Both the position numbers and the translations under genes were made by a program. Of a stretch of DNA of 56,017 nt, positions 6,959 to 56,017 are shown one piece after another. This stretch comes from Longimicrobiaceae bacterium. Lineage in GTDB: Bacteria; Gemmatimonadota; Gemmatimonadetes; Longimicrobiales; Longimicrobiaceae. How positions within the stretch are numbered: position 1 is the first letter of the stretch; each line of letters starts with the position of its first letter. The stretch covers positions 1-56,017 of the forward strand of contig DASVBS010000046.1 of NCBI GenBank assembly GCA_036375715.1, given 5' to 3'. The notes beneath the pieces were generated by a model, which worked only from the letters and a program-made list of their open reading frames with translations, had not been told where the DNA came from and did not search any database.

Positions 6959-6999
6959 GGACAAGGAGACAAGAAGTGACGGGGTGACAAGGTGAACGG
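6959..6999 (+). repeat. Octamer array, GTGACAAG family, left arm
   Basis: Begins 11 bases after the tex stop. In-phase 8-mers are GGACAAGG 6959-6966, AGACAAGA 6967-6974, then GTGACGGG 6976-6983, GTGACAAG 6984-6991 and the terminal unit GTGAACGG 6992-6999. The same terminal unit closes the array at 50441-50448. Confidence 0.75.
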
Positions 7000-7078: not shown

Positions 7079-7151
7079 GAGCCGGTAGCTCAGTTGGTAG
7101 AGCAGCGGACTTTTAATCCGTAGGTCGTGGGTTCGAGTCCCACCCGGCTCA
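7079..7151 (+). tRNA. tRNA-Lys (anticodon UUU)
   Basis: A full cloverleaf can be drawn by hand. The acceptor stem GAGCCGG (7079-7085) pairs with CCGGCTC (7144-7150), with discriminator A at 7151. The D arm is GCTC/GAGC. The anticodon stem GCGGA/TCCGT encloses the loop CTTTTAA with anticodon TTT. The T arm GTGGG/CCCAC encloses TTCGAGT. The CCA end is not encoded. It reads lysine AAA/AAG codons. Confidence 0.97.
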
Positions 7152-7263: not shown

Positions 7264-7281
7264 GGTTGTCACCTTGTCACC
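7264..7281 (-). repeat. Octamer array, GTGACAAG family, right arm
   Basis: TTGTCACC occurs twice in a row (7266-7273 and 7274-7281), the reverse complement of the 6984-6999 array. The pair of arms encloses the tRNA-Lys gene. Beyond it, 7282-7363 is C/T-rich with degenerate 8-base periodicity and runs up to the stop of the CPBP protease gene. Confidence 0.6.
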
Positions 7282-43502: not shown

Positions 43503-45278
43503 TCAGTAACCGGGGTTCTGCACGATCATCGAGTTACGGTTCAACTCGTCGCGGTGGATCGGCATGAAGTACAGCTTGTCGTCCCACGCGCGCGGCTGAA
43601 TGACCCGCGTCTCGTAGCGGTAGTCCGTCCAGGTTTCCCGATTGACGCGGTCCGCTCCCTTCAGGAAGATGTTAATGCCGCGAGCATCTTCGCTCAGCTC
43701 GTCCGGCGCGATCATCCAGCGACGGACATCGAAGAACCGCTGTTCCTCGAAGGCCATCTCGATGCGCCGTTCGCGACGATAGAGCTGGCGCAGCGAATCC
43801 TGGCTGATGCCGGCCGGGATCAGCGGCATGCCAGCCCGGGTGCGAAGCTGGTTCAGCACCCTGATCGCGTCATCCAGCTCGTTCAGCTCGATGGAAGCCT
43901 CGGCATAGTTCAGCAGGGTCTCCGCGTAGCGGAAGAAGATCCACGGGACCTCCTGCTTCACGAACTGGTGGTTCACCGACGGGTCGATGAACTTCTTGAG
44001 ATAGTACCCCGAGTAGGCCCCATTCCAGTCCTCGATCGGACCGTCGCGGGTATCCAGCCCGCCAACGGTGGTGCCGTCAGGCAGCGTCAGCTCGCGGAAG
44101 GTCTGGATGATCCCGTAGGGGTCGAGCTCCTTCACATCGTCCGGACGCTCGCGCCAGGGCGCGCCGTCGTACAGGATCGTGGCATAGAACCGCGGATCGC
44201 GGTTCTCGTAGGGCGCCGCCGCGTGCTCCGGGTTGTTCCAGTCGAACTCGGTGCCATCCGCCATCAGGAAATCGTCTACCAGGTTCTGGATCGGCGTGTT
44301 GCCGCCCCAGTTGTGGTAGCCGTTGGGCCCATTGTGCAGACCCGGATGGTAGCCGTCTCCCCGGTTCACCAGGAAGAACCGGCTCATGATGGCCTCGGAG
44401 CTCGTCTTCTGCAGGAAGAGCTCGTGGAAGTTCTGAGCCGCTTCCTCCGGAGACGCGGGATTCGGGGCGAACAGCTCGTAGAGGCCGAGGTTCATCACGT
44501 CCTCGTTGGCCTGCTTCGCTGCCCGCCACATCGCCGCGCGATCCTGGGCCGTGGGATAGCCCGTCTCGGCCGTGGCGCCTGCACGATGGTAGAGATCGCT
44601 GGCGGCGTAGGTAAGCACCCTGGCTTTCAGCGCGAGCGCGGCGCCCTTGGTGGCGCGGCCCACGTCCGCTCCGCTGTAGCTGAGCGGAAGGAGGTCCGCG
44701 GCGGCCTGGGCGTCCGCGACGATGAAGTCCACCGTCTCCTGGAAGCTGTTCCGCGGCACCTCATACTCCTCATTGAGTCCGTAGACTTTGGTGATCAGCG
44801 GAACGCCGCCATACATCCGCATCAGGTTGTGGTAGAAGTAGGCCCGGAGGAAGAGCGCCTCTCCCTTCATCCGGTTCTTCAGTTCCTCGTCGAAATCGGT
44901 CTGTTCGATATTCTCGAGGAAGATGTTCGTCTGACGGATGCGGAAGTAGTTGTTCGACCAGTCGAAATGGTCGAAGCGGCCATCGTCGATGGCGCCGCGA
45001 TCGCTCGAGGTGAGCGTCGCCTGGACCACGTCGCTGGTGCTGTAGTCGTGGATGAAGTGGGACTCATCGGTCATCGACGAGAGCATGATCTCGTACAGGC
45101 CGTGCCCCATCCCGATGTAGATGTCGTTCAGGAACGTCTCGGCCAGAGACGGATCGGCGAATACCGCCTCGTCCGAGATCTGATCTACTGGAGACAGGTC
45201 CAGGACGTCGTTGTCGCAACCCGTCAGGCCGAGCAGGACCAGCGTCGCTGCCGCGGCGGTGCGAATCTGTCGTCTCAT
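43503..45278 (-). CDS. SusD/RagB-family outer-membrane glycan-binding lipoprotein (pair 1)
   Basis: 591 residues. A lipoprotein signal (LVLLGLTGCDN) leads to the SusD helical scaffold with TPR-like repeats. Typical elements are DQISDEAVFADPSLAETFLN near the N terminus, GEALFLRAYFYHNLMRMYGG (about 116-135), and the C-terminal RTRAGMPL and YRRERRIEMAFEEQRFFDVR. It forms the surface lid of the SusC transporter encoded 12 bases upstream and captures oligosaccharides. The specificity cannot be read from sequence. Confidence 0.94.
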   Translation of the reverse strand: MRRQIRTAAAATLVLLGLTGCDNDVLDLSPVDQISDEAVFADPSLAETFLNDIYIGMGHGLYEIMLSSMTDESHFIHDYSTSDVVQATLTSSDRGAIDDGRFDHFDWSNNYFRIRQTNIFLENIEQTDFDEELKNRMKGEALFLRAYFYHNLMRMYGGVPLITKVYGLNEEYEVPRNSFQETVDFIVADAQAAADLLPLSYSGADVGRATKGAALALKARVLTYAASDLYHRAGATAETGYPTAQDRAAMWRAAKQANEDVMNLGLYELFAPNPASPEEAAQNFHELFLQKTSSEAIMSRFFLVNRGDGYHPGLHNGPNGYHNWGGNTPIQNLVDDFLMADGTEFDWNNPEHAAAPYENRDPRFYATILYDGAPWRERPDDVKELDPYGIIQTFRELTLPDGTTVGGLDTRDGPIEDWNGAYSGYYLKKFIDPSVNHQFVKQEVPWIFFRYAETLLNYAEASIELNELDDAIRVLNQLRTRAGMPLIPAGISQDSLRQLYRRERRIEMAFEEQRFFDVRRWMIAPDELSEDARGINIFLKGADRVNRETWTDYRYETRVIQPRAWDDKLYFMPIHRDELNRNSMIVQNPGY

Positions 45279-45290
45279 TATTGTCAGTCC

Positions 45291-48200
45291 TCAGAACGTG
45301 GCGGATGCGCCGATGTTGAAGACGCGCTTCTGCGGGTAGTACTGACCCGAGCTGCTCCGCGCCTCCGGATCCATCAGCTTGAACTTGTCCCAGGTGACGA
45401 GGTTGAACCCGCTCACGTACAGCCGCAGGTTGCTCATCCCCAACTGGTCAAGCACGCTGTCCGGAACGCGGTAACCAAGCTCGAGCGTCTTCAGACGCAC
45501 GTAGTCCGTCGAGCGCAGGAAGTACGTGTTGTTGTTGGAAACCCAGTACTCGTCCTGCCGGTTGTACGCCCGCGGATGCTTGTCGTTAGGCGCGTCGGGC
45601 CGCCAGCGCTTGTCCGCGTAGTCCTTCAGGTAGTTGCCGATGTCGCCCGACTCGGTCTCCAGGTACTGGACCGCTCCCCAGGCGCCCTGGAAGAAGGCGG
45701 TGACGTCGAAGTCCTTCACCTGCGCACCGAGCGTCAAGCCACCGGTCCAGGTGGGCTCGCCGTTCTTGTTGATCCGCACCCGGTCGTCGGAGGTGATCTC
45801 GTTGTCGCCGTTGACATCCTCGAAGATGATGTCCCCGGGCATGGCACCCGGCCAGTGCGGGTACGCCTCGAGGGCCGCCGAGTCCTCGAACACGCCGATC
45901 GCCCTGTAATAGAGACCGGTGTTCATCTTATGGCCGGTCGACTTCTGATAGTCCGGCGCGCCGGGCGGCTCGTCCCAGTACTTGATGCGGTTCTGGGCGT
46001 AGCCGAAGTTCAGTGTGATGTCGTAGGAGATCTCCGGCGCCACCGCCTCCCGCCACATCAGCGAGCCGTCGTAGCCCCAGCTCTCCACCTGGCCGATGTT
46101 CTCACGCGGCAGGCTGAGGCCGGTCGTCTGCGGAACCGACGCGTTGCGATAGTGCAGAATGTCGTCGCGCAGATAGCTGAAGTAGTCCAGCTCGAAGGCC
46201 AGACGACCGGAGAGCATCTGGCCGTCCAGACCGATGTCCAGCTGGTTGGCAACCTCCCAGGTTACATCCGGGTTGGGCGTGCGGGTCTGGTAGATGCTCT
46301 TGACCTCGTTGTTCACGCCGAAGACGTAACCCCCGCCGAAGCCATAGGTCGCCATGTACTGCCACTGGTCGATCCGGTCGTTACCGGTCTGACCCCAGGA
46401 GGCACGCAGCTTCAGGTCGTCAAAGACGGGCAGCGCATTCTGGAAGAACGGCTCTTCCGAGATTCGCCATCCCGCCGAGACCGCCGGGAAGAAGCCGAAG
46501 CGCTTGTCCTTGGGGAAGATGTACGACCCGTCGTAGCGGCCGATGAACTCGAGCAGGTACTTGTCGGCGAAGTCGTAGTTCAGTCGGGTGAAGTAGTTCT
46601 GCCGCGCTCCGTGGCCGGCGCTGCCCCAGTTGTCCATCTCCGCCTCACCGCCCGCGAACATCTGGTCGATCTCGGAGGAGATGAAGTACTTGCGGAAGGC
46701 ACCGAGGTTGGAGTCCTTGGACGTCTGCCGCTCGACACCGCCCAGGATCGACACCGAGTGGTCGCCGAAGTCCCGCTGGTACTGCGCGACCAGGTTCAGG
46801 AGGACGTCGGTGTCGCGATAGTCCGTCTGACTCAGCTCGGGGTCGCTGAAGCCGCGCTGGGCCGGCGTGAGAACCGGCTCACCGTTCTCGTCCCGGGTGA
46901 CGTAGTCCCAGGTGTACAGCGTCCAGGGCGTCCGCCACTGCTTCTGGTACCGGAACATCTCGTCGTAGGCGGCGTTCGCGCGGAAGGTCAGCCCGTCGAC
47001 GCCCGGCACCGTGATGTCGAAGCCCAGGTTCCCCTGCAGGAAATACCGCTCGTCGTTGTCGTAGCCCGTCGCAGGGGTTCCGATCACGACCGGGTTGTCA
47101 CCGTACTCGATGTCCGGCCCCGGCAGCCCGTTCGGCCAGTAGGCAGGCAGGTTGGGCTTACCGCGCATGATGGAGCGGAAGATCGCGCCCGCGCTGCGGT
47201 TCGGGAAGTTACGGTCCTCCAACCGGCCGCTGACGTCGAAGCGGAGGTTCAGCCAGTCGGTGACCTGACCGTCGATGTTGCTGCGGAAGCTGTACTGGTT
47301 GTAGCGAGTGGCGCTGTTCCGGTAGAAACCGTCCTCGGTGAGGCCGCCCAGGGAGAGATAGTAGCTCACCCGCTCGGCGCCTCCGCGCAGCGAGATGTCT
47401 CCTCGGGTCTGCGTCGACAGCGGCTTGATCACCTCGTCGAACCAGTCGGTGTTCGGGTACAGCCAGGGATCGGCGTTCGGATCCCGGTAGTTCGCGATCT
47501 CATCCTGGGAGTAGCGCGGCTGCCGGCCCCGGTAGATGTCGATCTCGTTGAGCATCTCCATGTAGGTGGCCGCGTCGGCCATCTCCGGGATGCGGGTGGG
47601 CTGGTTGAAGCCCTGGTTGATGTTCATCGACAGCTGCGGGGCGCCGGGCCTACCGCGCTTGGTGGTGATCAGGATCACGCCATTGGCCGCGCGCGATCCG
47701 TAGATCGCCGCCGACGCGTCCTTCAGCACCGAGATGCTCTCGATGTCCTGCGGGTTGAGGCGCTCGAGACCACCGGCGCGGTCCGGAACGCCGTCGATCA
47801 CGATGAGCGGGCTGTTGTTGTTCAGGGTCTGGCTACCGCGGATGCGGATCGAGGAGCCGTCGTAACCAGGCTCGCCGCTCGAGTTGACGGTGACCACACC
47901 CGGCAGCCTGCCGCCGATCGTGTTGGAGACGTTGACCGCCGGCGTGTTCTCGATCGCGTCGCCGGAGATCGCGCTCACGGAGCCAGTCAGGGTCGCCTTT
48001 CGTTGCGTGCCGTAGCCGACCGCCACGATCCCCTCGAGCTGCACCGCCGATGCGGACAGCACCAGGTTAGCCGTGGCGCTCTGGCCCGCCGTGACCGTGA
48101 CCGTGGTGGTCGCCTGCGTGTAGCCGATCATGCTTGCCTGGAGGGTCTGTTGGCCCGCCGGCACGCCCGTCAGGGTGTAGCGCCCGTCGGCGTCCGTGAG

Positions 48201-48380
48201 CCCAACGATCCCCGTTCCCTGCACGGTCACGCTCGCGCCGGAGAGGGGACTGCCGTCGTCCCCGGTCACTGTGCCCGTGACCTGACCCGTTGCCTGCGCC
48301 GAGAGTGACCCGTGCGAGGCAAGCAGGGCGGCTGCCACGATGGCCAGCAACCATCGCTTGCCGTACCTGAGTCCTTTCAT
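45291..48380 (-). CDS. SusC/RagA-family TonB-linked outer-membrane transporter (pair 1)
   Basis: 1029 residues. The signal peptide (ends about residue 28) is followed by a carboxypeptidase-regulatory-like Ig domain (GTVTGDDGSPLSGASVTVQG through VPAGQQTLQASMIGY). The TonB plug has the SusC signature VAVGYGTQRKATLTGSVS and IYGSRAANGVILITTK, and the 22-strand barrel ends in the aromatic motif FNIGASATF. With its SusD it imports oligosaccharides using TonB energy. It is the first gene of the pair; GH30 is divergent from it at 48793. Confidence 0.95.
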   Translation of the reverse strand: MKGLRYGKRWLLAIVAAALLASHGSLSAQATGQVTGTVTGDDGSPLSGASVTVQGTGIVGLTDADGRYTLTGVPAGQQTLQASMIGYTQATTTVTVTAGQSATANLVLSASAVQLEGIVAVGYGTQRKATLTGSVSAISGDAIENTPAVNVSNTIGGRLPGVVTVNSSGEPGYDGSSIRIRGSQTLNNNSPLIVIDGVPDRAGGLERLNPQDIESISVLKDASAAIYGSRAANGVILITTKRGRPGAPQLSMNINQGFNQPTRIPEMADAATYMEMLNEIDIYRGRQPRYSQDEIANYRDPNADPWLYPNTDWFDEVIKPLSTQTRGDISLRGGAERVSYYLSLGGLTEDGFYRNSATRYNQYSFRSNIDGQVTDWLNLRFDVSGRLEDRNFPNRSAGAIFRSIMRGKPNLPAYWPNGLPGPDIEYGDNPVVIGTPATGYDNDERYFLQGNLGFDITVPGVDGLTFRANAAYDEMFRYQKQWRTPWTLYTWDYVTRDENGEPVLTPAQRGFSDPELSQTDYRDTDVLLNLVAQYQRDFGDHSVSILGGVERQTSKDSNLGAFRKYFISSEIDQMFAGGEAEMDNWGSAGHGARQNYFTRLNYDFADKYLLEFIGRYDGSYIFPKDKRFGFFPAVSAGWRISEEPFFQNALPVFDDLKLRASWGQTGNDRIDQWQYMATYGFGGGYVFGVNNEVKSIYQTRTPNPDVTWEVANQLDIGLDGQMLSGRLAFELDYFSYLRDDILHYRNASVPQTTGLSLPRENIGQVESWGYDGSLMWREAVAPEISYDITLNFGYAQNRIKYWDEPPGAPDYQKSTGHKMNTGLYYRAIGVFEDSAALEAYPHWPGAMPGDIIFEDVNGDNEITSDDRVRINKNGEPTWTGGLTLGAQVKDFDVTAFFQGAWGAVQYLETESGDIGNYLKDYADKRWRPDAPNDKHPRAYNRQDEYWVSNNNTYFLRSTDYVRLKTLELGYRVPDSVLDQLGMSNLRLYVSGFNLVTWDKFKLMDPEARSSSGQYYPQKRVFNIGASATF

Positions 48381-48792
48381 CCGAAACCTCCAGAGGGGTT
48401 GGGAGGAATCCCATCAGCCATCACGAGCGGCGATCGAGATGGCCGATGGGTACAACGCCGGGTGCTTGGAACAGCCCCGGCCGAAATAGTTCAAAGCTCT
48501 GGAATTGTCGGTGACTGGCGACGCCGAGCTCGGTGTTTCTCCATGACCGGCTGCGGCGGTGCCCGGACGCACGAGCCTCCGGGCGGCGAACCATCTAGCG
48601 ACGGTCGGCCACGCGACCCCTGATTCTTCGGAAATGCCGGACTCGCGCGATTCGGTGAGATAAGCGCGCGTCGAAATCGACGGTGTTCGTTTGGGGTTTC
48701 AAGTCGAGCGATACACCGATAATGTACCGCCGCCGGTTAGTCAACAGGTCCGCGCCACCTGGCTTTTTCTCCCCTACCCCCCGGTTCACCCG
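48381..48792. other. Divergent region between susC (pair 1) and GH30
   Basis: 412 bases with no convincing gene. A GATAAT hexamer at 48718-48723 could be a -10 for GH30, but no good -35 is present at the right spacing. The susC side shows no clear promoter. No repeat array and no terminator are visible, consistent with a regulatory region between diverging genes. Confidence 0.5.
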
Positions 48793-50412
48793 ATGAATCG
48801 CGCCCCGAGTCAGCACAGGAATCTCCGTATCTTGCGTTTATCCAAGGACTTGTGGCGGATCGCGGCGACCTTTTTGGTCGCTTCCTGTACGGTCGTGGAG
48901 ACGGGTGGAGCGCGAGTGGGGACGGCGGACGAAGAGGTGATCGAGGTCACCCTGCACCCCGACCGGGAGCGCCAGACGATCCACAACTTCGGCGCCTCCG
49001 ACGCCTGGAGCATCCAGTTCGTGGGCGAACACTGGCCGGAGGTCAAGCGGGAGCGCATCGCGGACCTGCTCTTCAGCACCGACACGACCGCGGATGGATC
49101 CCCGATCGGGATCGGCTTGAGCGCCTGGCGCTTCAACCTCGGTGCGGGGAGCGTGGAGCAGGGCAGGGAGAGCGGGATCCGTGACCGCTGGCGCCGAGCC
49201 GAGTCCTTCCTGCGCGCCGACGGCTCGTTCGATGCCGCGGCGCAGCCAGGCCAGCGTGCCTTCCTCCGGGCGGCGCGCGCGCGAGGCGTCGAGCAGTTCT
49301 ACGCCTTCACCAACAGCCCGCCGGTGGCAATCACCCGGAACGGTCGGGCCCACTCCAGCGGCGGAGACGCCGCCAACCTCGCTCCGGAGCGCTATGCCGA
49401 CTACGCGCGCGTCCTGGTGCGCGCGCTCGACGAGATCCGCCGGACCGACGGCGTGACCTTCACCTATGTCAGCCCGGTGAACGAGCCCCAATGGGATTGG
49501 ACGGGAGGGCAGGAGGGGGGCCCCTGGAGGAATGAGGAGATCGCGGCCTTCGCGCGCGAGCTCAGCGGCGCGCTGGTCGAAGCGGGACTCCCGACCCGGA
49601 TCGAGCTGGCCGAGACCGCCCGGCTCAACTACCTCTACGAGACCGCCGACAAGCCCACCCGCGGAGCACAGGCGCGAGCCTTCTTCGATCCCGCATCACC
49701 CCACTTCGTGGGCGATCTCCCCCACGTCTCCCCGAGCCTCGCCGCGCACAGCTATTTCACCACCTATCCGGCCGACACTCTGCGCTCGGTGCGGCGGCGG
49801 GTGCGCGAGGAGCTGCGGGCCGTCGACCCCGAGCTCGAGCTGGTCATCAGCGAGTACTGCGTGCTGGAGGACAACCCGCTGATCGAGGGCAGCGGTCGTG
49901 ACCTGGGGATGAACACTGCCCTGTATGTGACCGGGGTGATTCACTCCGACCTGGTGGACGCGGAGGCGAGCGCCTGGCAGTGGTGGCTCGCCGTGAGCCC
50001 CTACGACTACAAGGACGGCCTGATCTACATCGACCGCGATACGCTGGACGGCGCTGTCTACGAGTCGAAGCTGTTGTGGGCGTTGGGACATTACTCCCGC
50101 TTCGTCCGTCCGGGCATGCGGCGCATCGAGGTCACCGCCCGGGACACCGTGCTCGTAAACGGCACCGACGCTGAGCTGCTCACCTCCGCTTATCGGGATC
50201 CCGTCACCGGCCGGATGGTCGCCGTCCTCGTCAACCGAGGCGAGGAGGCTCGGCGGGTGAGGCTGATCGGGATGCGGGGGGGAGCGGTCTACCGCACTAC
50301 GGAGGATCCGGATGTGAACCTGCGGCGCGACGGGAGCCTATCCGCGGAGGGGGAGCTGCTGGTACCGGGGAGGAGTCTGGTGACGGTGGCGGGGGAGGGA
50401 GTGACAGGGTGA
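48793..50412 (+). CDS. Glycoside hydrolase family 30, endo-beta-1,6-galactanase-like, lipoprotein
   Basis: 539 residues. A signal with lipobox-like Cys (TFLVASCTV) precedes a (beta/alpha)8 catalytic domain plus a C-terminal beta domain. The GH30 acid/base Glu231 is in SPVNEPQWDW and the nucleophile Glu354 in LVISEYCVLEDNP. The substrate-side block HNFGASDAWSIQFVGEHWP and GIGLSAWRFNLGAGS match endo-beta-1,6-galactanases better than glucosylceramidases or xylanases. It should cut beta-1,6-galactan side chains of type II arabinogalactan at the cell surface. The last codons and the stop lie inside the GTGACAAG repeat array. It is convergent with the second susD. Confidence 0.88.
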   Translation: MNRAPSQHRNLRILRLSKDLWRIAATFLVASCTVVETGGARVGTADEEVIEVTLHPDRERQTIHNFGASDAWSIQFVGEHWPEVKRERIADLLFSTDTTADGSPIGIGLSAWRFNLGAGSVEQGRESGIRDRWRRAESFLRADGSFDAAAQPGQRAFLRAARARGVEQFYAFTNSPPVAITRNGRAHSSGGDAANLAPERYADYARVLVRALDEIRRTDGVTFTYVSPVNEPQWDWTGGQEGGPWRNEEIAAFARELSGALVEAGLPTRIELAETARLNYLYETADKPTRGAQARAFFDPASPHFVGDLPHVSPSLAAHSYFTTYPADTLRSVRRRVREELRAVDPELELVISEYCVLEDNPLIEGSGRDLGMNTALYVTGVIHSDLVDAEASAWQWWLAVSPYDYKDGLIYIDRDTLDGAVYESKLLWALGHYSRFVRPGMRRIEVTARDTVLVNGTDAELLTSAYRDPVTGRMVAVLVNRGEEARRVRLIGMRGGAVYRTTEDPDVNLRRDGSLSAEGELLVPGRSLVTVAGEGVTG

Positions 50413-50556
50413 CAAGGTGACAAGGTGACAAGGTGACAAGGTGAACGGCACGCAGGGCATCCATCCGAGCCACACGCCATCCACGATTGCGTTGACCAGC
50501 ACGGCAGCATCCGATTCCGCGCCGCCGTTCACCTTGTCACCTTGTCACTGTTCACC
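50401..50556. repeat. Inverted octamer arrays (GTGACAAG / CTTGTCAC) between convergent genes
   Basis: Left arm, six in-phase 8-mers: GTGACAGG 50401-50408, GTGACAAG four times (50409-50440), then the cap unit GTGAACGG 50441-50448. Right arm: cap CCGTTCAC 50525-50532, then CTTGTCAC 50533-50540 and 50541-50548, and a decayed unit. The core of 76 bases is unrelated. The first units encode the end of GH30 and supply its stop codon (TGA 50410-50412). The right arm ends about 10 bases before the susD stop at 50567. Confidence 0.92.
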
Positions 50557-50566
50557 CACCGTGCCC

Positions 50567-52159
50567 TCAATACCCCGGGTTCTGCGAGATATTTGAATTC
50601 AGATCCACCTCCTTCTGCGGAATGGGCCAGAGCATGTCGCGCGCGGGATCGAACGAGCGGAAATCGGCCGGGATGGTCTGCAGGTTTCCGTTCTCGTCGA
50701 TGTAGTCGATCCCGTAGTGCTGACCCGCCATCACCTGCTGGGCGATGCCCCAGCGCCGGATGTCGAACAGGCGTAGCCCTTCGAAGGCCAGCTCGATACG
50801 CCGCTCGTGCCGCACGATCTCACGCAGCTCATCCTGCGTGTGCGGCGGCGTGATCTCCGGCATGTCCGCCCGGGAACGCACCGCGTTGATGGCGTCGTAG
50901 ACCGTCTGATCGATCTGGTTCAGCTCGATCTTGGCTTCGGCGTACATCAACAGGACGTCCGCATAGCGCATCAGGATGAAGTCCACGCCGCTGTTGCCGC
51001 GATCGTTCTTATCCTCCGGGTTTACGTACTTGATGAACTGGTACCCGGTGGCGGTGGCGTTGAAGTCGCTGCGCACCTGGTCGGGCGTGGTGCTGCTCGG
51101 CAGCGAGTTGTACACGACCCCGTCGAAGAGTGCGCCGGGATACAGCAGGGTCGAGTACATCCGCGGATCACGGTTCTCGTACGGGTTGTCCGGGTCGAAG
51201 AGCGGAGACTCGTCGATGGGCAGCCCGTCGATCATGTGGTAGTCGTCCACCAGCGAGCGGAGCGGGGTGAAGGTGCTCCCTCCCTGGAAGGAGCGCGGGC
51301 CGTAGTCCGCGAACGCCCCTTGCGGACGGATGGTCTGGGCACGGCGGTCGGCGAAGATGATCTCCCGACTCTCGTCGCCGGCGTAGCGGGTGAGATTATG
51401 GTAATCAGGCTCCAGGATGTACTCCCCGCTGGCCATGACCTCCTGCGCCGCGGCCACCACGGTGTTCCAGTCGTTCGCCCAGAGGGCCGCACGGGCCTTG
51501 TAGCCGAGTGCCGCACCACGGGTGGCGCGCCCGTACTGCTCCGGAGGGTACTCCGACCTCTCGGGGAGCACTGCTGCGGCCGCGTCCAGGTCGGCGTAGA
51601 TCTGCTCCTGGATCTGGGCTCGCGGCGTGCGCGTCACGCTGGATGCGGCCGCGATGTCGTCCAGCGGCTCCAGCACCAGCGGTACGTCGCCGAAGAGGTT
51701 GATGAGGTACATGTAGTGGAAGGCGCGATGGAAGCGCGTCTCGGCGATGAGCCGCTCCTTGAGCCCCGCATCGATCGCCTCGATCTCGTCGATGTGCGCG
51801 AGGATCTCGTTGGCCCGGCGAATCGAGCGGTAGGAGTCCGCCCAGAAATCACCGAAGTTGCCGTTGAGCGGCGTGGCCGCGCCCTGCCCGATGGAGTACC
51901 AGTTGTCGAACGATTTCTGCGCCCAGGCGTTGTCGGTCAACGCGTCGAGCTGATACGCGATGCGGTTCGTCCGGTTGGTGCCTCCCGCCTGGTAGAGCTG
52001 GTAGAGGGCGTTCACCGCCAGCTCCGCATCCTTCTGCTGCGTCCAGAAGATCGCGTCGGATACCTCGTCGGGTGGCCGCGTCTCCAGGAAGCTGTCGTCG
52101 CACGCTGCCACCACGATGGCCCCTCCCAGTAGGAGGGCGAGTGCTCTATGTCGTTTCAT
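50567..52159 (-). CDS. SusD/RagB-family outer-membrane glycan-binding lipoprotein (pair 2)
   Basis: 530 residues. Lipoprotein signal GGAIVVAACDDSFLETRPPDE, then the SusD scaffold: FHRAFHYMYLINLFGDVPLV (about 140-159), ATRGAALGYKARAALWANDW, and the C-terminal RSRADMPEITPP and HERRIELAFEGLRLFDIRRWG. The two SusD proteins in the window share only general family features, so they are likely to bind different glycans. ATG 52159 is chosen over a TTG 12 bases upstream. It follows susC of pair 2 by 67 bases. Confidence 0.94.
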   Translation of the reverse strand: MKRHRALALLLGGAIVVAACDDSFLETRPPDEVSDAIFWTQQKDAELAVNALYQLYQAGGTNRTNRIAYQLDALTDNAWAQKSFDNWYSIGQGAATPLNGNFGDFWADSYRSIRRANEILAHIDEIEAIDAGLKERLIAETRFHRAFHYMYLINLFGDVPLVLEPLDDIAAASSVTRTPRAQIQEQIYADLDAAAAVLPERSEYPPEQYGRATRGAALGYKARAALWANDWNTVVAAAQEVMASGEYILEPDYHNLTRYAGDESREIIFADRRAQTIRPQGAFADYGPRSFQGGSTFTPLRSLVDDYHMIDGLPIDESPLFDPDNPYENRDPRMYSTLLYPGALFDGVVYNSLPSSTTPDQVRSDFNATATGYQFIKYVNPEDKNDRGNSGVDFILMRYADVLLMYAEAKIELNQIDQTVYDAINAVRSRADMPEITPPHTQDELREIVRHERRIELAFEGLRLFDIRRWGIAQQVMAGQHYGIDYIDENGNLQTIPADFRSFDPARDMLWPIPQKEVDLNSNISQNPGY

Positions 52160-52226
52160 GAGTATTCGCAATCACCAAGTCGTTGGATAACCCTGTCGCA
52201 GGCGCCACGCGCCCGCGAGCGCCGCC

Positions 52227-55200
52227 TCAGAATCCGATGCTCGTGCCGAACGAGATCGTGCGCGTCTGCGGATACACGGTTCCGCGGCCGCTCGGGAACT
52301 CCGGATCGAGCAGCAGGTCCTGGTCGGTGAACGTCAGGAGATTCTGACCGGAGATGTAGATCCTCATCCGGTCGATCCTCAGCCGCTCCGTGACCGACAG
52401 CGGCAGGGTGTAGCCGATCTGGGCGTTGCGCAGCTTGATGTACGAAGCGTCCTGCACCCAGAAGGAGTTCCGGTCACCGAAGTTGTGGTGCACCTGGAGC
52501 GCCGGCTTGGGCATGCGTGCATGCGGATCGGGGTTGTCCGGCGTCCAGCGGTCGAGCCACGCCTCGGTGGTGAAATTCTCCCACACGGGCCCCTCTACCA
52601 GCGCGCCCTCGAGGTACGCGTCCACCTTCAGCACGCCCTGAAAGAACGCGCTCACGTCGAAGCCTTTCCAGCTGGCGGCGAGGTTCGAGCCGACGGTGTA
52701 GCGAGGCAGATCGTTGCCGACCACCGTGCGATCGTCGGCGTTGATGATGCCGTCGTTGTTCTGATCGACGAACTTGATGTCGCCCGGCCCGGTGAGCGGG
52801 TTCTGCTGGGCGTGAGCATCCACCTCGGCCTGGTCCACGAAGAGACCATCCGCCTCGTACGCCCACATCGTCCCCAGCGGCAGGCCTTCCTGGATGATGA
52901 AGACGCCGTTGATGTAGGGTCCAGTGCCCTTGAGATCGAGGACCTTGTTCTTGTTGTCCGAGAGATTGAACCCCAGCGAGTAGCTACCGTCTCGGAAGGT
53001 GTCCTGCCAGTTGAGGGCCGCCTCCCAGCCGCGGTTCTCGATGGAGCCGGCGTTCTGGGTGGGCTCACCCAGGCCCATGATGTCCGGGATGGGGAGCTCG
53101 ATGAGGTTGCCAGTCGTCACCTTCCGATAGATGTCTCCGATGAAGCTGAGGCGGCCATCGAACAGGGAGATGTCGATGCCGAAGTCCGTCATCTCCGTGG
53201 TCTCCCAGGAGATGTCGCGGTTGGCGAGATCTTCCTTGGCGGCGCCCGGAGTAAGGGTGCTGCCGAAGAGGTAATCCCGGCCGAATTCGATGCTACCGAA
53301 GTAGCGATAGAGGCCGATGTTCTGGTTCCCCATCTCACCCCAGGAGGCGCGCAGCTTCAGCTCGTTCACCCAGGGAACGTTGAAGAAGTGCTCCTGTGAG
53401 ATGCGCCATGCGCCGGAGACGGAGGGGAAGAAGCCGAAGCGATTCCCCTCGGCGAAGCGGCTCGAACCGTCGTAGCGGGCACTCAGCTCGAGCAGGTAGC
53501 GGTCGTCGAAGCCATAAGACAGGCGTCCGAAACCCGAGCGGAGCCGCCAGGCCTCGGAGGTGCCCCAGTTGCCGTCGCGGCTCGCATCGCCGGCGTTGAT
53601 CTCCTGCAGCTCGTTGCTGTAGAAGACGTCGCGGTCGGCGCGGATCTCGTCCCAGTCGAACTGTGTCTGGTCGTATCCGAGGGTGGCCGAGACGCTGTGG
53701 CGGTCGAAGGTGCGATCGAGGTCGAGTTGTCCCCGGAGGTAGTACTCACGGGTGGTCGACTTGCGGCGGTCGAGCCGGTTGGTGTCGATCGACCTGCGCA
53801 CGATCGAGGGGTCGAAGAAGTCACGGAACTCCGCCTGGTTGCGCCAGTAGGCGTAGTCCCAGTTGTCCACGTCCGCCGAAGCCTGGGTGCGCACCGCCAG
53901 CCAGTCGAAGAGCTGGTAGTCCGCCTTGGTGTTCAGCGTCCCGTGATAGGTGGTGCGGTCGACCGTACCCCACGCCTCGGCGTAGGCCAGCGGGTTGTGG
54001 TTGTTGCGGCTCCAGCCATAGGTGCCGTCCGGGTACTTCGCCATCACCGTGGGAGGCGTGTCGTGGAAGGCCCGGAAGTACACCTCTCCCTGGTTGCTCG
54101 ACTCCTCGTACCAGTTGCGCCGCAGGGCGAGGTCGGCGCCGGCGGTGAGCCGGCTGGTCAAGTTGAAGTCGGTGTTCAGCCGCAGCCCGTACCGATTGGC
54201 CGCGGTGTTCGGCAGCATCCCATCCTGGTCGAAGTAGTTCAGGGAGAGATTGAAGCGCGCGAGATCGTTGCCGCCGACCACGCCCAGGGTGTGGTCCATG
54301 ATCGGGGCAGGGTCGTAGAGCACGTCGATCCAGTCGGTCCACGGATACTGCAGCGGGTCGACGCTCGGATCGCCGCGCAGCGCCTTCTCGGTATTGGAGA
54401 TGTACTCCTCGCTGTAGAAGTTGGGCGGCTGCCCGGCATTGACGCGCGCCTCGTTGATGAGCGTGAGGTAGTCCCGCGGGCCGACCGCCTTCGGCATCGT
54501 GCCCACGCCCTGGATGCCGTAGTAGCCGTCATAGGTGACCTGAAGCCGCCCGGTGGCGGTGCCGCGCTTGGTGGTGATCAGGATCACCCCATTCGCGGCT
54601 CGCGAGCCGTAGATGGCGGCGGACGAAGCGTCCTTCAGCACCGAGATGCTGGCGATGTCGAGGGGGTTGATCTGGTTGATGTCGCCCTCGATGCCGTCGA
54701 TCAGGACGAGCGGGGTGGTGCTGTTCTGGATCGATCCGCGGCCGCGGATGTTGAACTGGATCGACTGGGCGCCCGGCTGCGAGGAGCGCTGGATCACCGT
54801 CAGCCCGGGCGTGGTCCCGGCGAGCGCCTCGGTGATCCGGGCGATCGGCCGCGACTCGAGCTGTTCGGTGGAGACGCTGGCCACCGCTCCGGTGATGTCG
54901 GCGCGGCGTTGCGTGCCATATCCGACCGCCACCACGCCCTCCAGCTCCACTGCGGAAGAGGTGAGCTGGAAGTTCTGCTCCACTGCCTGCCCGGCCGCTA
55001 TCGTGACCGTGGCCTCCTGCTCCGTGTAGCCGATGAGCACCGCGCGGATCGTGCGCTGGCCTGGCTGGACGCCGGAGATGGTGTAGCGACCATCCTGTCC
55101 CGAGAGCGCGCCCGCGGCCGTCCCGACTACCGAAATACTGGCCCCGGCCAGAGGCTGTCCGTTCTCGTCCGTCACCGTCCCGAACACCTGCCCCGTCACC

Positions 55201-55286
55201 TGCGCCGCCGTGGCCGATGGCACAGCGATCAACGCCGTAGCCGTCAGCGCGAGCAGCCTACCTCGCACGGACTGGAGTGGACTCAT
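52227..55286 (-). CDS. SusC/RagA-family TonB-linked outer-membrane transporter (pair 2)
   Basis: 1019 residues. After a signal peptide (about residues 1-28) come the regulatory Ig-like domain (GTVTDENGQPLAGASISVVG, GVQPGQRTIRAVLIGY), the plug (VAVGYGTQRRADITGAVAS, IYGSRAANGVILITTK), and a barrel with closing ISFGTSIGF. Both SusC proteins share the plug signature but differ widely in the barrel loops. It should form the transport channel with the SusD encoded downstream. No sigma or anti-sigma gene lies beside either pair, so regulation is not by a local ECF/FecR system within the window. Confidence 0.95.
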   Translation of the reverse strand: MSPLQSVRGRLLALTATALIAVPSATAAQVTGQVFGTVTDENGQPLAGASISVVGTAAGALSGQDGRYTISGVQPGQRTIRAVLIGYTEQEATVTIAAGQAVEQNFQLTSSAVELEGVVAVGYGTQRRADITGAVASVSTEQLESRPIARITEALAGTTPGLTVIQRSSQPGAQSIQFNIRGRGSIQNSTTPLVLIDGIEGDINQINPLDIASISVLKDASSAAIYGSRAANGVILITTKRGTATGRLQVTYDGYYGIQGVGTMPKAVGPRDYLTLINEARVNAGQPPNFYSEEYISNTEKALRGDPSVDPLQYPWTDWIDVLYDPAPIMDHTLGVVGGNDLARFNLSLNYFDQDGMLPNTAANRYGLRLNTDFNLTSRLTAGADLALRRNWYEESSNQGEVYFRAFHDTPPTVMAKYPDGTYGWSRNNHNPLAYAEAWGTVDRTTYHGTLNTKADYQLFDWLAVRTQASADVDNWDYAYWRNQAEFRDFFDPSIVRRSIDTNRLDRRKSTTREYYLRGQLDLDRTFDRHSVSATLGYDQTQFDWDEIRADRDVFYSNELQEINAGDASRDGNWGTSEAWRLRSGFGRLSYGFDDRYLLELSARYDGSSRFAEGNRFGFFPSVSGAWRISQEHFFNVPWVNELKLRASWGEMGNQNIGLYRYFGSIEFGRDYLFGSTLTPGAAKEDLANRDISWETTEMTDFGIDISLFDGRLSFIGDIYRKVTTGNLIELPIPDIMGLGEPTQNAGSIENRGWEAALNWQDTFRDGSYSLGFNLSDNKNKVLDLKGTGPYINGVFIIQEGLPLGTMWAYEADGLFVDQAEVDAHAQQNPLTGPGDIKFVDQNNDGIINADDRTVVGNDLPRYTVGSNLAASWKGFDVSAFFQGVLKVDAYLEGALVEGPVWENFTTEAWLDRWTPDNPDPHARMPKPALQVHHNFGDRNSFWVQDASYIKLRNAQIGYTLPLSVTERLRIDRMRIYISGQNLLTFTDQDLLLDPEFPSGRGTVYPQTRTISFGTSIGF

Positions 55287-55742
55287 TCTGCACCTCCAGG
55301 GGAAGGAAAACGCCCCACCGCGCCTGGGCCGGATGGTCCGGGACGCCGGGGGCGTGGGTTCGGGCGCGTGCGAGCGCCCGGCGGGAGACGGAGGGATTAA
55401 ACCAGCAGGACCGCGGAGGGGCTCCGACGGTGGCCGTGGTCATGGTTGCTGGAAGAGCGATCGCGTCGGCCCGCGGGGGCCGGCGTGTGGAGGCGCGGCA
55501 CCGGAGCAGGAGCGCTCCGGCAGGTACACTGCACCGGACTTTCGGCTGCGGCCGACGGCGCGGCCGCCTGACACTTACCGAATACCGAGCTTATCGTGCA
55601 CGCCGCGGCGTCTCGTCTCCACTTGGGGAAGGGGTGGCGGGAGCCGTGGTGGAAGTGCCGGTGGGCTTTGTTCCATCGATATCGTTGGAACCAGGGGAAG
55701 TCAAGGGGCAGGGGAGGTGGGGCAGGGGTGGGGGAGGTTGCG
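55287..55742. other. Region upstream of susC (pair 2), G-rich toward its right end
   Basis: 456 bases. Presumed promoter region of the second susCD pair on the minus strand; no strong hexamers found. From about 55685 the plus strand becomes markedly G-rich (runs such as GGGGCAGGGG) and merges into the octamer array at 55743. Open frames in it are low complexity and not convincing. Confidence 0.45.
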
Positions 55743-55782
55743 GGACAAGGAGACAAGGAGAAGAGGAGACAAGGAGGAACGG
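55743..55782 (+). repeat. Octamer array, ACAAGG family, single arm
   Basis: Five in-phase 8-mers: GGACAAGG 55743-55750, AGACAAGG 55751-55758, AGAAGAGG 55759-55766, AGACAAGG 55767-55774, AGGAACGG 55775-55782. The closing unit resembles the GTGAACGG cap at 6992-6999 and 50441-50448. No facing arm is visible before the IS481 sequence begins. Confidence 0.65.
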
Positions 55783-55809
55783 GCCAGCGGGTGCAGACGC
55801 AGCGAGGGT

Positions 55810-56017
55810 ACAGACCGGCCACATAGGTAACAGTTTAAACCGGGCACATAGGTAACACACAGCGCAAACTAGAGCACCCCGAACTTGGAGGTGCTCGATG
55901 CCCTGGAGTGAGACCTGCCCGATGGAAGAGCGAGCGCGGTTTGTACTCGAGGCTCTCGAGGGCTGGACCTCGATGAGCGAGATCTGCCAGAAGTTCGGGA
56001 TCAGTCGGCGGATTGGT
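55810..56017 (+). mobile_element. IS481-family insertion sequence, left end (cut by window)
   Basis: The 13-base word CACATAGGTAACA occurs as direct copies at 55820-55832 and 55845-55857, the kind of double end-motif seen at IS481-family termini. The transposase start follows at 55898. The exact outer tip and any target duplication cannot be fixed without the right end. Confidence 0.75.
55898..56017 (+). CDS. IS481-family transposase, N-terminal fragment (cut by window)
   Basis: 40 codons before the window ends. The start MPWSETCPMEERARFVLEAL and the helix-turn-helix stretch MSEICQKFGISRR match the conserved N terminus of IS481-type DDE transposases. The catalytic DDE core lies beyond the window, so integrity cannot be judged. 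Confidence 0.85.
   Translation, partial: MPWSETCPMEERARFVLEALEGWTSMSEICQKFGISRRIG

What the first reader, a model, noticed from the sequence alone, without database searches (positions are those of the whole stretch)
50401..50556. Octamer element with a conserved cap unit, supplying a stop codon
Six GTGACAAG-type units, then GTGAACGG, a 76-base core, CCGTTCAC and two CTTGTCAC units. The same GTGAACGG cap closes the array at 6992-6999, and AGGAACGG closes the one at 55775-55782. A recurring terminal unit at separate loci argues for a defined element end and not simple slippage. The first units encode the last residues of the GH30 protein and its stop, so insertion or growth of the array has shaped a coding end.
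Basis: seen in the sequence. Interest (0 to 1): 0.72.

Follow-up and report, generated by a model that had tools for sequence, protein, structure and literature searches.

The report
Stop-codon-anchored octamer repeats forming hairpins
Runs of an eight-base DNA repeat sit right after the stop codons of many genes in this Gemmatimonadota bacterium, always on the gene's sense strand and often facing a mirrored run so that the message could fold into a long hairpin; some relatives build the same layout from a completely different eight-base repeat, which makes this look like a gene-end element whose sequence gets replaced between genera.

Summary
50401-50448 holds GTGACAGG, four GTGACAAG and GTGAACGG (five units plus cap, not six). 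A 76-bp core follows, then CCGTTCAC and two CTTGTCAC. The array supplies GH30's last codons (VTG) and its stop. The genome carries at least 53 such clusters; reversed-pattern controls give none. The cap is a real but minority feature: exact GTGAACGG follows 15 of 50 unbiased arrays (GTGANNGG 31) and precedes 2. The larger finding is an architecture. In this genome 46 of 99 arrays begin within -40..+30 nt of a sense stop codon, none of an antisense one (null about 11 each); 21 have the stop at or inside them. All 28 inverted pairs have the purine arm first. A same-family relative (G016) uses an unrelated octamer, AGTGCGNN, with the same layout: 37 sense versus 2 antisense, 25 of 25 pairs purine-first, its own inner cap. 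Best reading: a post-stop (3'-UTR) hairpin or array element built from genus-specific octamers, most likely acting at mRNA 3' ends. RNA function is inferred. Arm covariation is weak here and absent in G016, so tolerated slippage DNA remains a serious rival. Location resembles published stop-proximal G-rich heptamers: a new variant of a known kind.

The parts
50401..50448 (+). Purine-rich octamer arm: GTGACAGG, 4x GTGACAAG, cap GTGAACGG; sense strand of the GH30 gene
50410..50412 (+). Stop codon TGA of the GH30 gene, inside the second octamer; the array encodes the last residues V-T-G
   Evidence: homologous domain (3clw) ends at residue 569 of 573
50441..50448 (+). Inner cap unit GTGAACGG
50449..50524 (.). 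76-bp core between the arms (loop side of the predicted hairpin); no Rfam match
50525..50548 (-). Opposite arm: on the - strand GTGACAAG, GTGACAAG, GTGAACGG; begins 19 nt after the stop of the convergent SusD gene, on its sense strand
   Evidence: with the first arm forms a 26-bp predicted stem, MFE -77 kcal/mol, z=-6.4
48691..50412 (+). Neighbour: GH30 glycoside hydrolase (PF14587) whose end is supplied by the array
50567..52171 (-). Neighbour: SusD/RagB-like gene (PF07980), convergent with GH30
6976..6999 (+). Second array: GTGACGGG GTGACAAG GTGAACGG, 29 nt after the stop of the Tex gene
7265..7280 (-). Short pyrimidine arm facing the 6976 array; the core between them contains tRNA-Lys (7079-7151)
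55742..55782 (+). GGGACAAG/GAGACAAG-type array followed out of register by AGGAACGG

Best explanation
A post-stop-codon (3'-UTR) element made of tandem octamers. On the sense strand it begins at or a few bases after the stop codon as a purine-rich array, often ends inward in a cap unit, and is often followed after a core by the mirrored pyrimidine array, so the transcript from either side reads purine arm, core, pyrimidine arm and can fold into a long hairpin. The most likely role is at mRNA 3' ends: it terminates or insulates transcription arriving from both sides and/or shields the 3' end from exonucleases. The array changes length and sequence by slippage, so the octamer differs between genera while position, strand and mirrored layout persist. 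Shown: sequence, position, strand, order of arms, cap polarity, recurrence with a different octamer in another genus. Inferred: RNA folding in vivo, termination or protection, slippage.
For: Sense stop anchoring: G000 46 sense vs 0 antisense in -40..+30 nt (null 11.2, max 20 of 300); G016 37 vs 2 in -5..+20 nt (null 4.0, max 10). Single-arm clusters alone: 14 sense vs 1 antisense. Stop at or inside the array in 21 runs, 25 more within 30 nt. Purine arm first in 28/28 pairs (G000) and 25/25 (G016). Both arms also occur between co-directional genes (15 of 28), so the inverted layout is not merely two convergent gene ends. Four G016-genus genomes hold short-loop hairpins of the other octamer (49-83 pattern matches each, overlapping ones counted; control 0). 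Window hairpin z=-6.4. In G016, 19% of convergent, 14% of tandem and 7% of divergent gaps of 40 bp or more carry an arm.
Against: No arm covariation in G016 (own duplexes not better than swapped, p=0.95; G-U 17 vs A-C 29 on the anchored strand) and only weak covariation in G000 (p=0.016). 25 of 53 clusters show only one arm. No strong U-tract follows the 3' arm. In G019 the GGGACAAG arrays are not stop-anchored (3 sense, 2 antisense, null 2.5). About half of arms have no adjacent predicted stop, although the gene finder was home-made.
Confidence: 0.45

Rival explanations
1. Neutral or selfish short tandem repeats. Octamers arise and grow by replication slippage and hairpin-mediated template switching, and survive mainly just after stop codons because that is the safest place. 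Strand bias reflects a mutational asymmetry such as a G-rich non-template strand downstream of transcribed genes.
For: Unit sequence changes completely between genera and most phylum genomes lack it; no covariation between arms in G016; degenerate units at array edges; G019 arrays are not anchored.
Against: 46:0 and 37:2 sense bias and invariably purine-first pairs need an added mechanism. Antisense arms between co-directional genes are not explained by transcription asymmetry. A recurrent inner cap in each genus is unexpected for plain slippage.
Confidence: 0.35
2. Binding sites for a genus-specific protein that reads a 6-bp motif at 8-bp spacing, as DNA or mRNA; the octamer tracks its binder.
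For: In the relatives the hexamer AGTGCG is constant while the NN spacer varies freely and does not covary.
Against: No candidate binder was sought or found; the octamers are not enriched as singletons outside clusters in G000 (GTGACAAG 1 seen, 2.6 expected).
Confidence: 0.12
3. REP/BIME- or MITE-like mobile palindromes moved by a transposase.
For: Dispersed, palindromic, extragenic, with a recurring inner end.
Against: No Y1 transposase (PF01797) in the genome although the search rings in 5 control genomes; arm length and core sequence vary from locus to locus; target duplications were not tested systematically.
Confidence: 0.05
4. DNA-uptake-type sequences doubling as terminators, with genus dialects.
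For: Inverted pairs at gene ends and genus-specific words.
Against: Tandem arrays rather than singletons; no singleton enrichment in G000.
Confidence: 0.03

Closest known systems
GGGNATC / GGGGA(C/T)T heptamer repeats of Xanthomonas and Nostoc (PMC4692102)
   Same: Short G-rich tandem units dispersed over the genome; [quoted passage not shown]
   Different: Period 7 with quadruplex-forming G-tracts there; period 8, inverted arms, inner cap and genus-swapped units here. The abstract and intergenic section that I read do not describe inverted arms.
TAACTGA heptamers of Beggiatoaceae, Cyanobacteria and Bacteroidetes (PMC4679880)
   Same: Tandem direct repeats with stop codons in all three forward frames, so they can overlap ORF ends; patchy distribution across phyla.
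   Different: Mostly just upstream of start codons; a single inverted pair; 819 singletons.
REP/BIME and related palindromic families (PMC3733652; PMC3116915)
   Same: Extragenic palindromes hypothesised to act in termination and mRNA stabilisation (abstract).
   Different: 20-40 bp palindromes in the REP literature; here octamer arrays and no Y1 transposase in the genome.
GNGACAAG-type octamer arrays in Nostocales, Chloroflexota, Planctomycetota, Acidobacteria and others
   Same: Same octamer core; in intergenic cases with two flanking ORFs the 5' neighbour is co-oriented in 47 of 74, median distance 14-30 nt; some have inverted arms (L137, L158, L203).
   Different: No paper in the library searched holds these repeat strings; relationship to the present arrays (shared origin or convergence) unknown.

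Membership tests
Stop-proximal G-rich short tandem repeats (Xanthomonas/Nostoc kind) | Tandem short G-rich units dispersed through the genome | tested here: met
   124 hits, reversed control 0
[quoted passage not shown]
   46 sense vs 0 antisense, null 11
Stop-proximal G-rich short tandem repeats (Xanthomonas/Nostoc kind) | Heptamer with G-tracts of three or more able to form quadruplexes | tested here: not met
   Period 8; the main unit GTGACAAG has only GG tracts by reading; no biophysics possible
REP/BIME elements | RAYT (Y1) transposase in the genome | tested here: not met
   PF01797 absent, 5 of 14 controls positive
REP/BIME elements | Conserved 20-40 bp palindrome | tested here: not met
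   Runs of 2-9 octamers, cores 31-228 bp of differing sequence
Intrinsic transcription terminators | Stable hairpin soon after the stop codon | tested here: met
   MFE -77 kcal/mol, z=-6.4 at the window locus; stop anchoring
Intrinsic transcription terminators | U-tract after the hairpin | tested here: not met
   T fraction after the 3' arm mostly 0.1-0.5 with no run in either genus, except position +1 in G016
Intrinsic transcription terminators | RNA 3' ends mapped there | not testable with these tools
   no transcript data
DNA uptake sequences | Over-represented as single copies genome-wide | tested here: not met
   GTGACAAG 1 vs 2.6 expected, GTGAACGG 14 vs 12.1 in 248 kb outside clusters

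The most novel reading that the evidence does not exclude
In this bacterial family gene ends carry a dedicated 3'-end element whose layout (stop codon, sense octamer array, inner cap, core, mirrored array) persists while its octamer alphabet is replaced wholesale between genera, because an unidentified factor reads the octamer and the two co-evolve as a dialect.
Probability: 0.15. Interest if true: 0.85.

Novelty: new variant of a known kind. Interest (0 to 1): 0.5.

Why it matters
Short tandem repeats in bacteria are usually read as slippage noise or phase-variation switches. Here two unrelated octamers in two genera of one family show the same strand-specific anchoring at stop codons and the same mirrored order, which asks for a common cause at gene ends: transcript 3'-end formation, a reading factor, or a mutational process tied to transcription. 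It also shows arrays supplying stop codons and C-terminal residues in about twenty genes, so repeat growth edits proteome ends. The predictions are testable with ordinary RNA 3'-end mapping.

Tried and rejected
(1) A shared GAACGG motif between the G000 cap and the 5' head of G016 arrays looked real in hand-picked examples but holds in only 2 of 93 arms: rejected. (2) Mirrored variants between arms as evidence for RNA selection: weak in G000 (p=0.016), absent in G016 (p=0.95; G-U not favoured over A-C). (3) Cap-to-cap matching within a locus: r=0.16, p=0.25. (4) Rare units shared by both arms: one locus only, p=0.31. (5) RAYT/REP: no Y1 transposase. (6) DNA-uptake words: no singleton enrichment. 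(7) GH30 orthologues for the replaced-codon test: none in 60 relatives. (8) Plasmid database match of the element: none; Rfam: only tRNA. Part of the cap set was found by a cap pattern, corrected.

Full report
OBSERVATION. The described structure is in the sequence, with one correction: five GTGAC-type units (GTGACAGG, then four GTGACAAG) precede the cap GTGAACGG at 50441-50448. The core is 76 bp (50449-50524), and CCGTTCAC plus two CTTGTCAC follow to 50548. The cap at 6992-6999 is exact. The AGGAACGG at 55775-55782 is out of register and not the same word. In the window (GTGACAAG)2 with up to three mismatches occurs 12 times against 0.07 expected. In the whole genome (G000, 4.37 Mb, 87 contigs) GACAAGGNGACAAGG has 124 exact matches and GACAAGGNGAACGG 24, with 0 for the reversed controls.

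ANATOMY. I fetched 49 stretches around the hits, which with the window give 53 clusters and 99 in-register octamer runs. Units are mostly GTGACAAG, with GAGACAAG, GGGACAAG, GTGACGGG, GTGACAGG, GTGAGGGG and GTGAACGG. In 28 clusters both orientations are present, always with the purine arm first and the pyrimidine arm second, separated by 31-228 bp (median 105). Cores differ, but several share a GGCC-type hairpin (L066, L068, L070, L093), and the core of the 6976/7265 pair contains tRNA-Lys. RNA of the window element folds to -77 kcal/mol, z=-6.4, with a continuous 26-bp stem made of two units plus cap and two further pairs against their mirror.

THE CAP. Among runs containing GTGAACGG it is the last unit in 21 and the first in 2; shuffling unit order gives 7.7 last on average and never more than 18. 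Because some loci were found with a cap pattern, I recounted on runs with two consecutive GTGACAAG: 15 of 50 are followed by the exact cap, 31 of 50 by GTGANNGG, and 2 are preceded by it. So the cap is a real polar feature of a minority. It is also an octamer variant that can itself repeat.

THE STOP CODON. A simple codon-model gene finder (home-made) puts a sense stop at or inside 21 of 99 runs and within 30 nt before another 25. Tails often read ...VTG*...VTR* or ...ETR*, as GTG ACA RGG TGA dictates. For GH30 (PF14587) the solved relative 3clw aligns to residue 569 of 573, so the array lies beyond the domain and supplies only the last residues and the stop. Orthologues for a direct before/after comparison were not found in 60 relatives. 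Against random placement in intergenic space of the same loci, 46 arrays begin within -40..+30 nt of a sense stop (null mean 11.2, max 20 of 300 trials) and none relative to an antisense stop.

RELATIVES. The GTGACAAG form is nearly confined to this genome: 90 hits here, 1 in one of 20 same-family genomes, none in 40 same-order ones. That one genome, G019, instead has 52 GACAAGG(A/G/C)GACAAGG hits, nearly all listed ones of the G form. Its contig C310 appears identical to L131, a record titled 'Gemmatimonadetes bacterium isolate 0707_bin15' (same length of 5728 and same array), which places the family in Gemmatimonadota. None of the other genomes in a 395-genome phylum sample has three units in a row. 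Other family members carry a different octamer, AGTGCGNN, in 11 of 18 searched same-family genomes and up to 1,071 three-unit hits. G000 has none. In 606 kb of one of these (G016) I found 93 arms: 37 begin within -5..+20 nt of a sense stop against 2 antisense (null 4.0 and 3.8), 25 of 25 inverted pairs are purine-arm-first, and 31 of 93 arrays are followed inward by [CT][CT]GG, a second, different inner cap. Part of that 606 kb was chosen because it held hairpins, so the frequency of pairs is not a genome average; the strand and order statistics do not depend on this choice in an obvious way. Four genomes of that genus hold short-loop hairpins of this octamer (49-83 pattern matches each, overlapping matches counted; controls 0). 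G019 is the exception: its arrays are not stop-anchored.

BEYOND THE PHYLUM. In intergenic cases with both neighbours visible, the 5' neighbour on the purine strand is co-oriented in 47 of 74, median distance 14-30 nt, and a few have inverted arms. These ORF calls are rough.

MECHANISM. The strand-specific anchoring and the fixed order of arms, reproduced with unrelated octamers in two genera, point to a cause acting at gene 3' ends. I favour a 3'-UTR element that can fold into a hairpin from either direction and act in termination, insulation or 3'-end protection, with array length and sequence drifting by slippage (0.45). Against it: no compensatory pairing in G016 and only weak pairing in G000, single-armed clusters (25 of 53), and no U-tract. 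Slippage DNA tolerated after stop codons (0.35) fits the turnover, but not, without more, the strand bias, the arm order or the inner caps. A sequence-reading factor (0.12) fits the constant hexamer with free spacer.

KNOWN KINDS. The location matches what Rehm et al. (PMC4692102) report for GGGNATC-type heptamers: coding strand, 0-50 bp from the stop, including overlap with the stop. TAACTGA repeats (PMC4679880) also carry stops in all frames and overlap ORF ends, but lie mostly before start codons. REP elements are excluded as a membership by the missing Y1 transposase. No paper in the held library contains the octamer strings. Hence: new variant of a known kind.

LIMITS.

Noticed in passing
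window 55793-56017: Start of an insertion-sequence-like element directly after the 55742 array; the ORF at 55898 begins with a helix-turn-helix (PF13518). The same end sequence follows an array at the end of contig C56 (L079), so insertion sequences may favour these arrays.
   Followed up: partly
L055, L072, L073, L079, L087, L103: Several arrays lie within about 350 bp of a contig end, as expected if repeated elements next to arrays broke the assembly.
   Followed up: no
L066, L068, L070, L093 cores: A recurrent hairpin of the kind GAGGCCGGYATC...GATRCCGGCCTC inside the cores, resembling an intrinsic terminator, shared by at least four loci.
   Followed up: partly
G016, G015, G014, G018, G010: Very high load of AGTGCGNN octamer arrays (hundreds to over a thousand three-unit hits per genome) in one genus of the family.
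   Followed up: yes
L137, L158 (Zavarzinella), L203, L114: Inverted-arm versions of GNGACAAG arrays in other phyla, e.g. a compact hairpin in Zavarzinella formosa.
   Followed up: partly
cyanobacterial loci such as L132, L144, L162: Cyanobacterial GNGACAAG arrays often end in a recurring GGAGAATAATT tail, possibly another cap.
   Followed up: no
window 43503-48380 and 50567-55286: Two SusC/SusD-type pairs flank the GH30 gene, a carbohydrate-utilisation layout.
   Followed up: no
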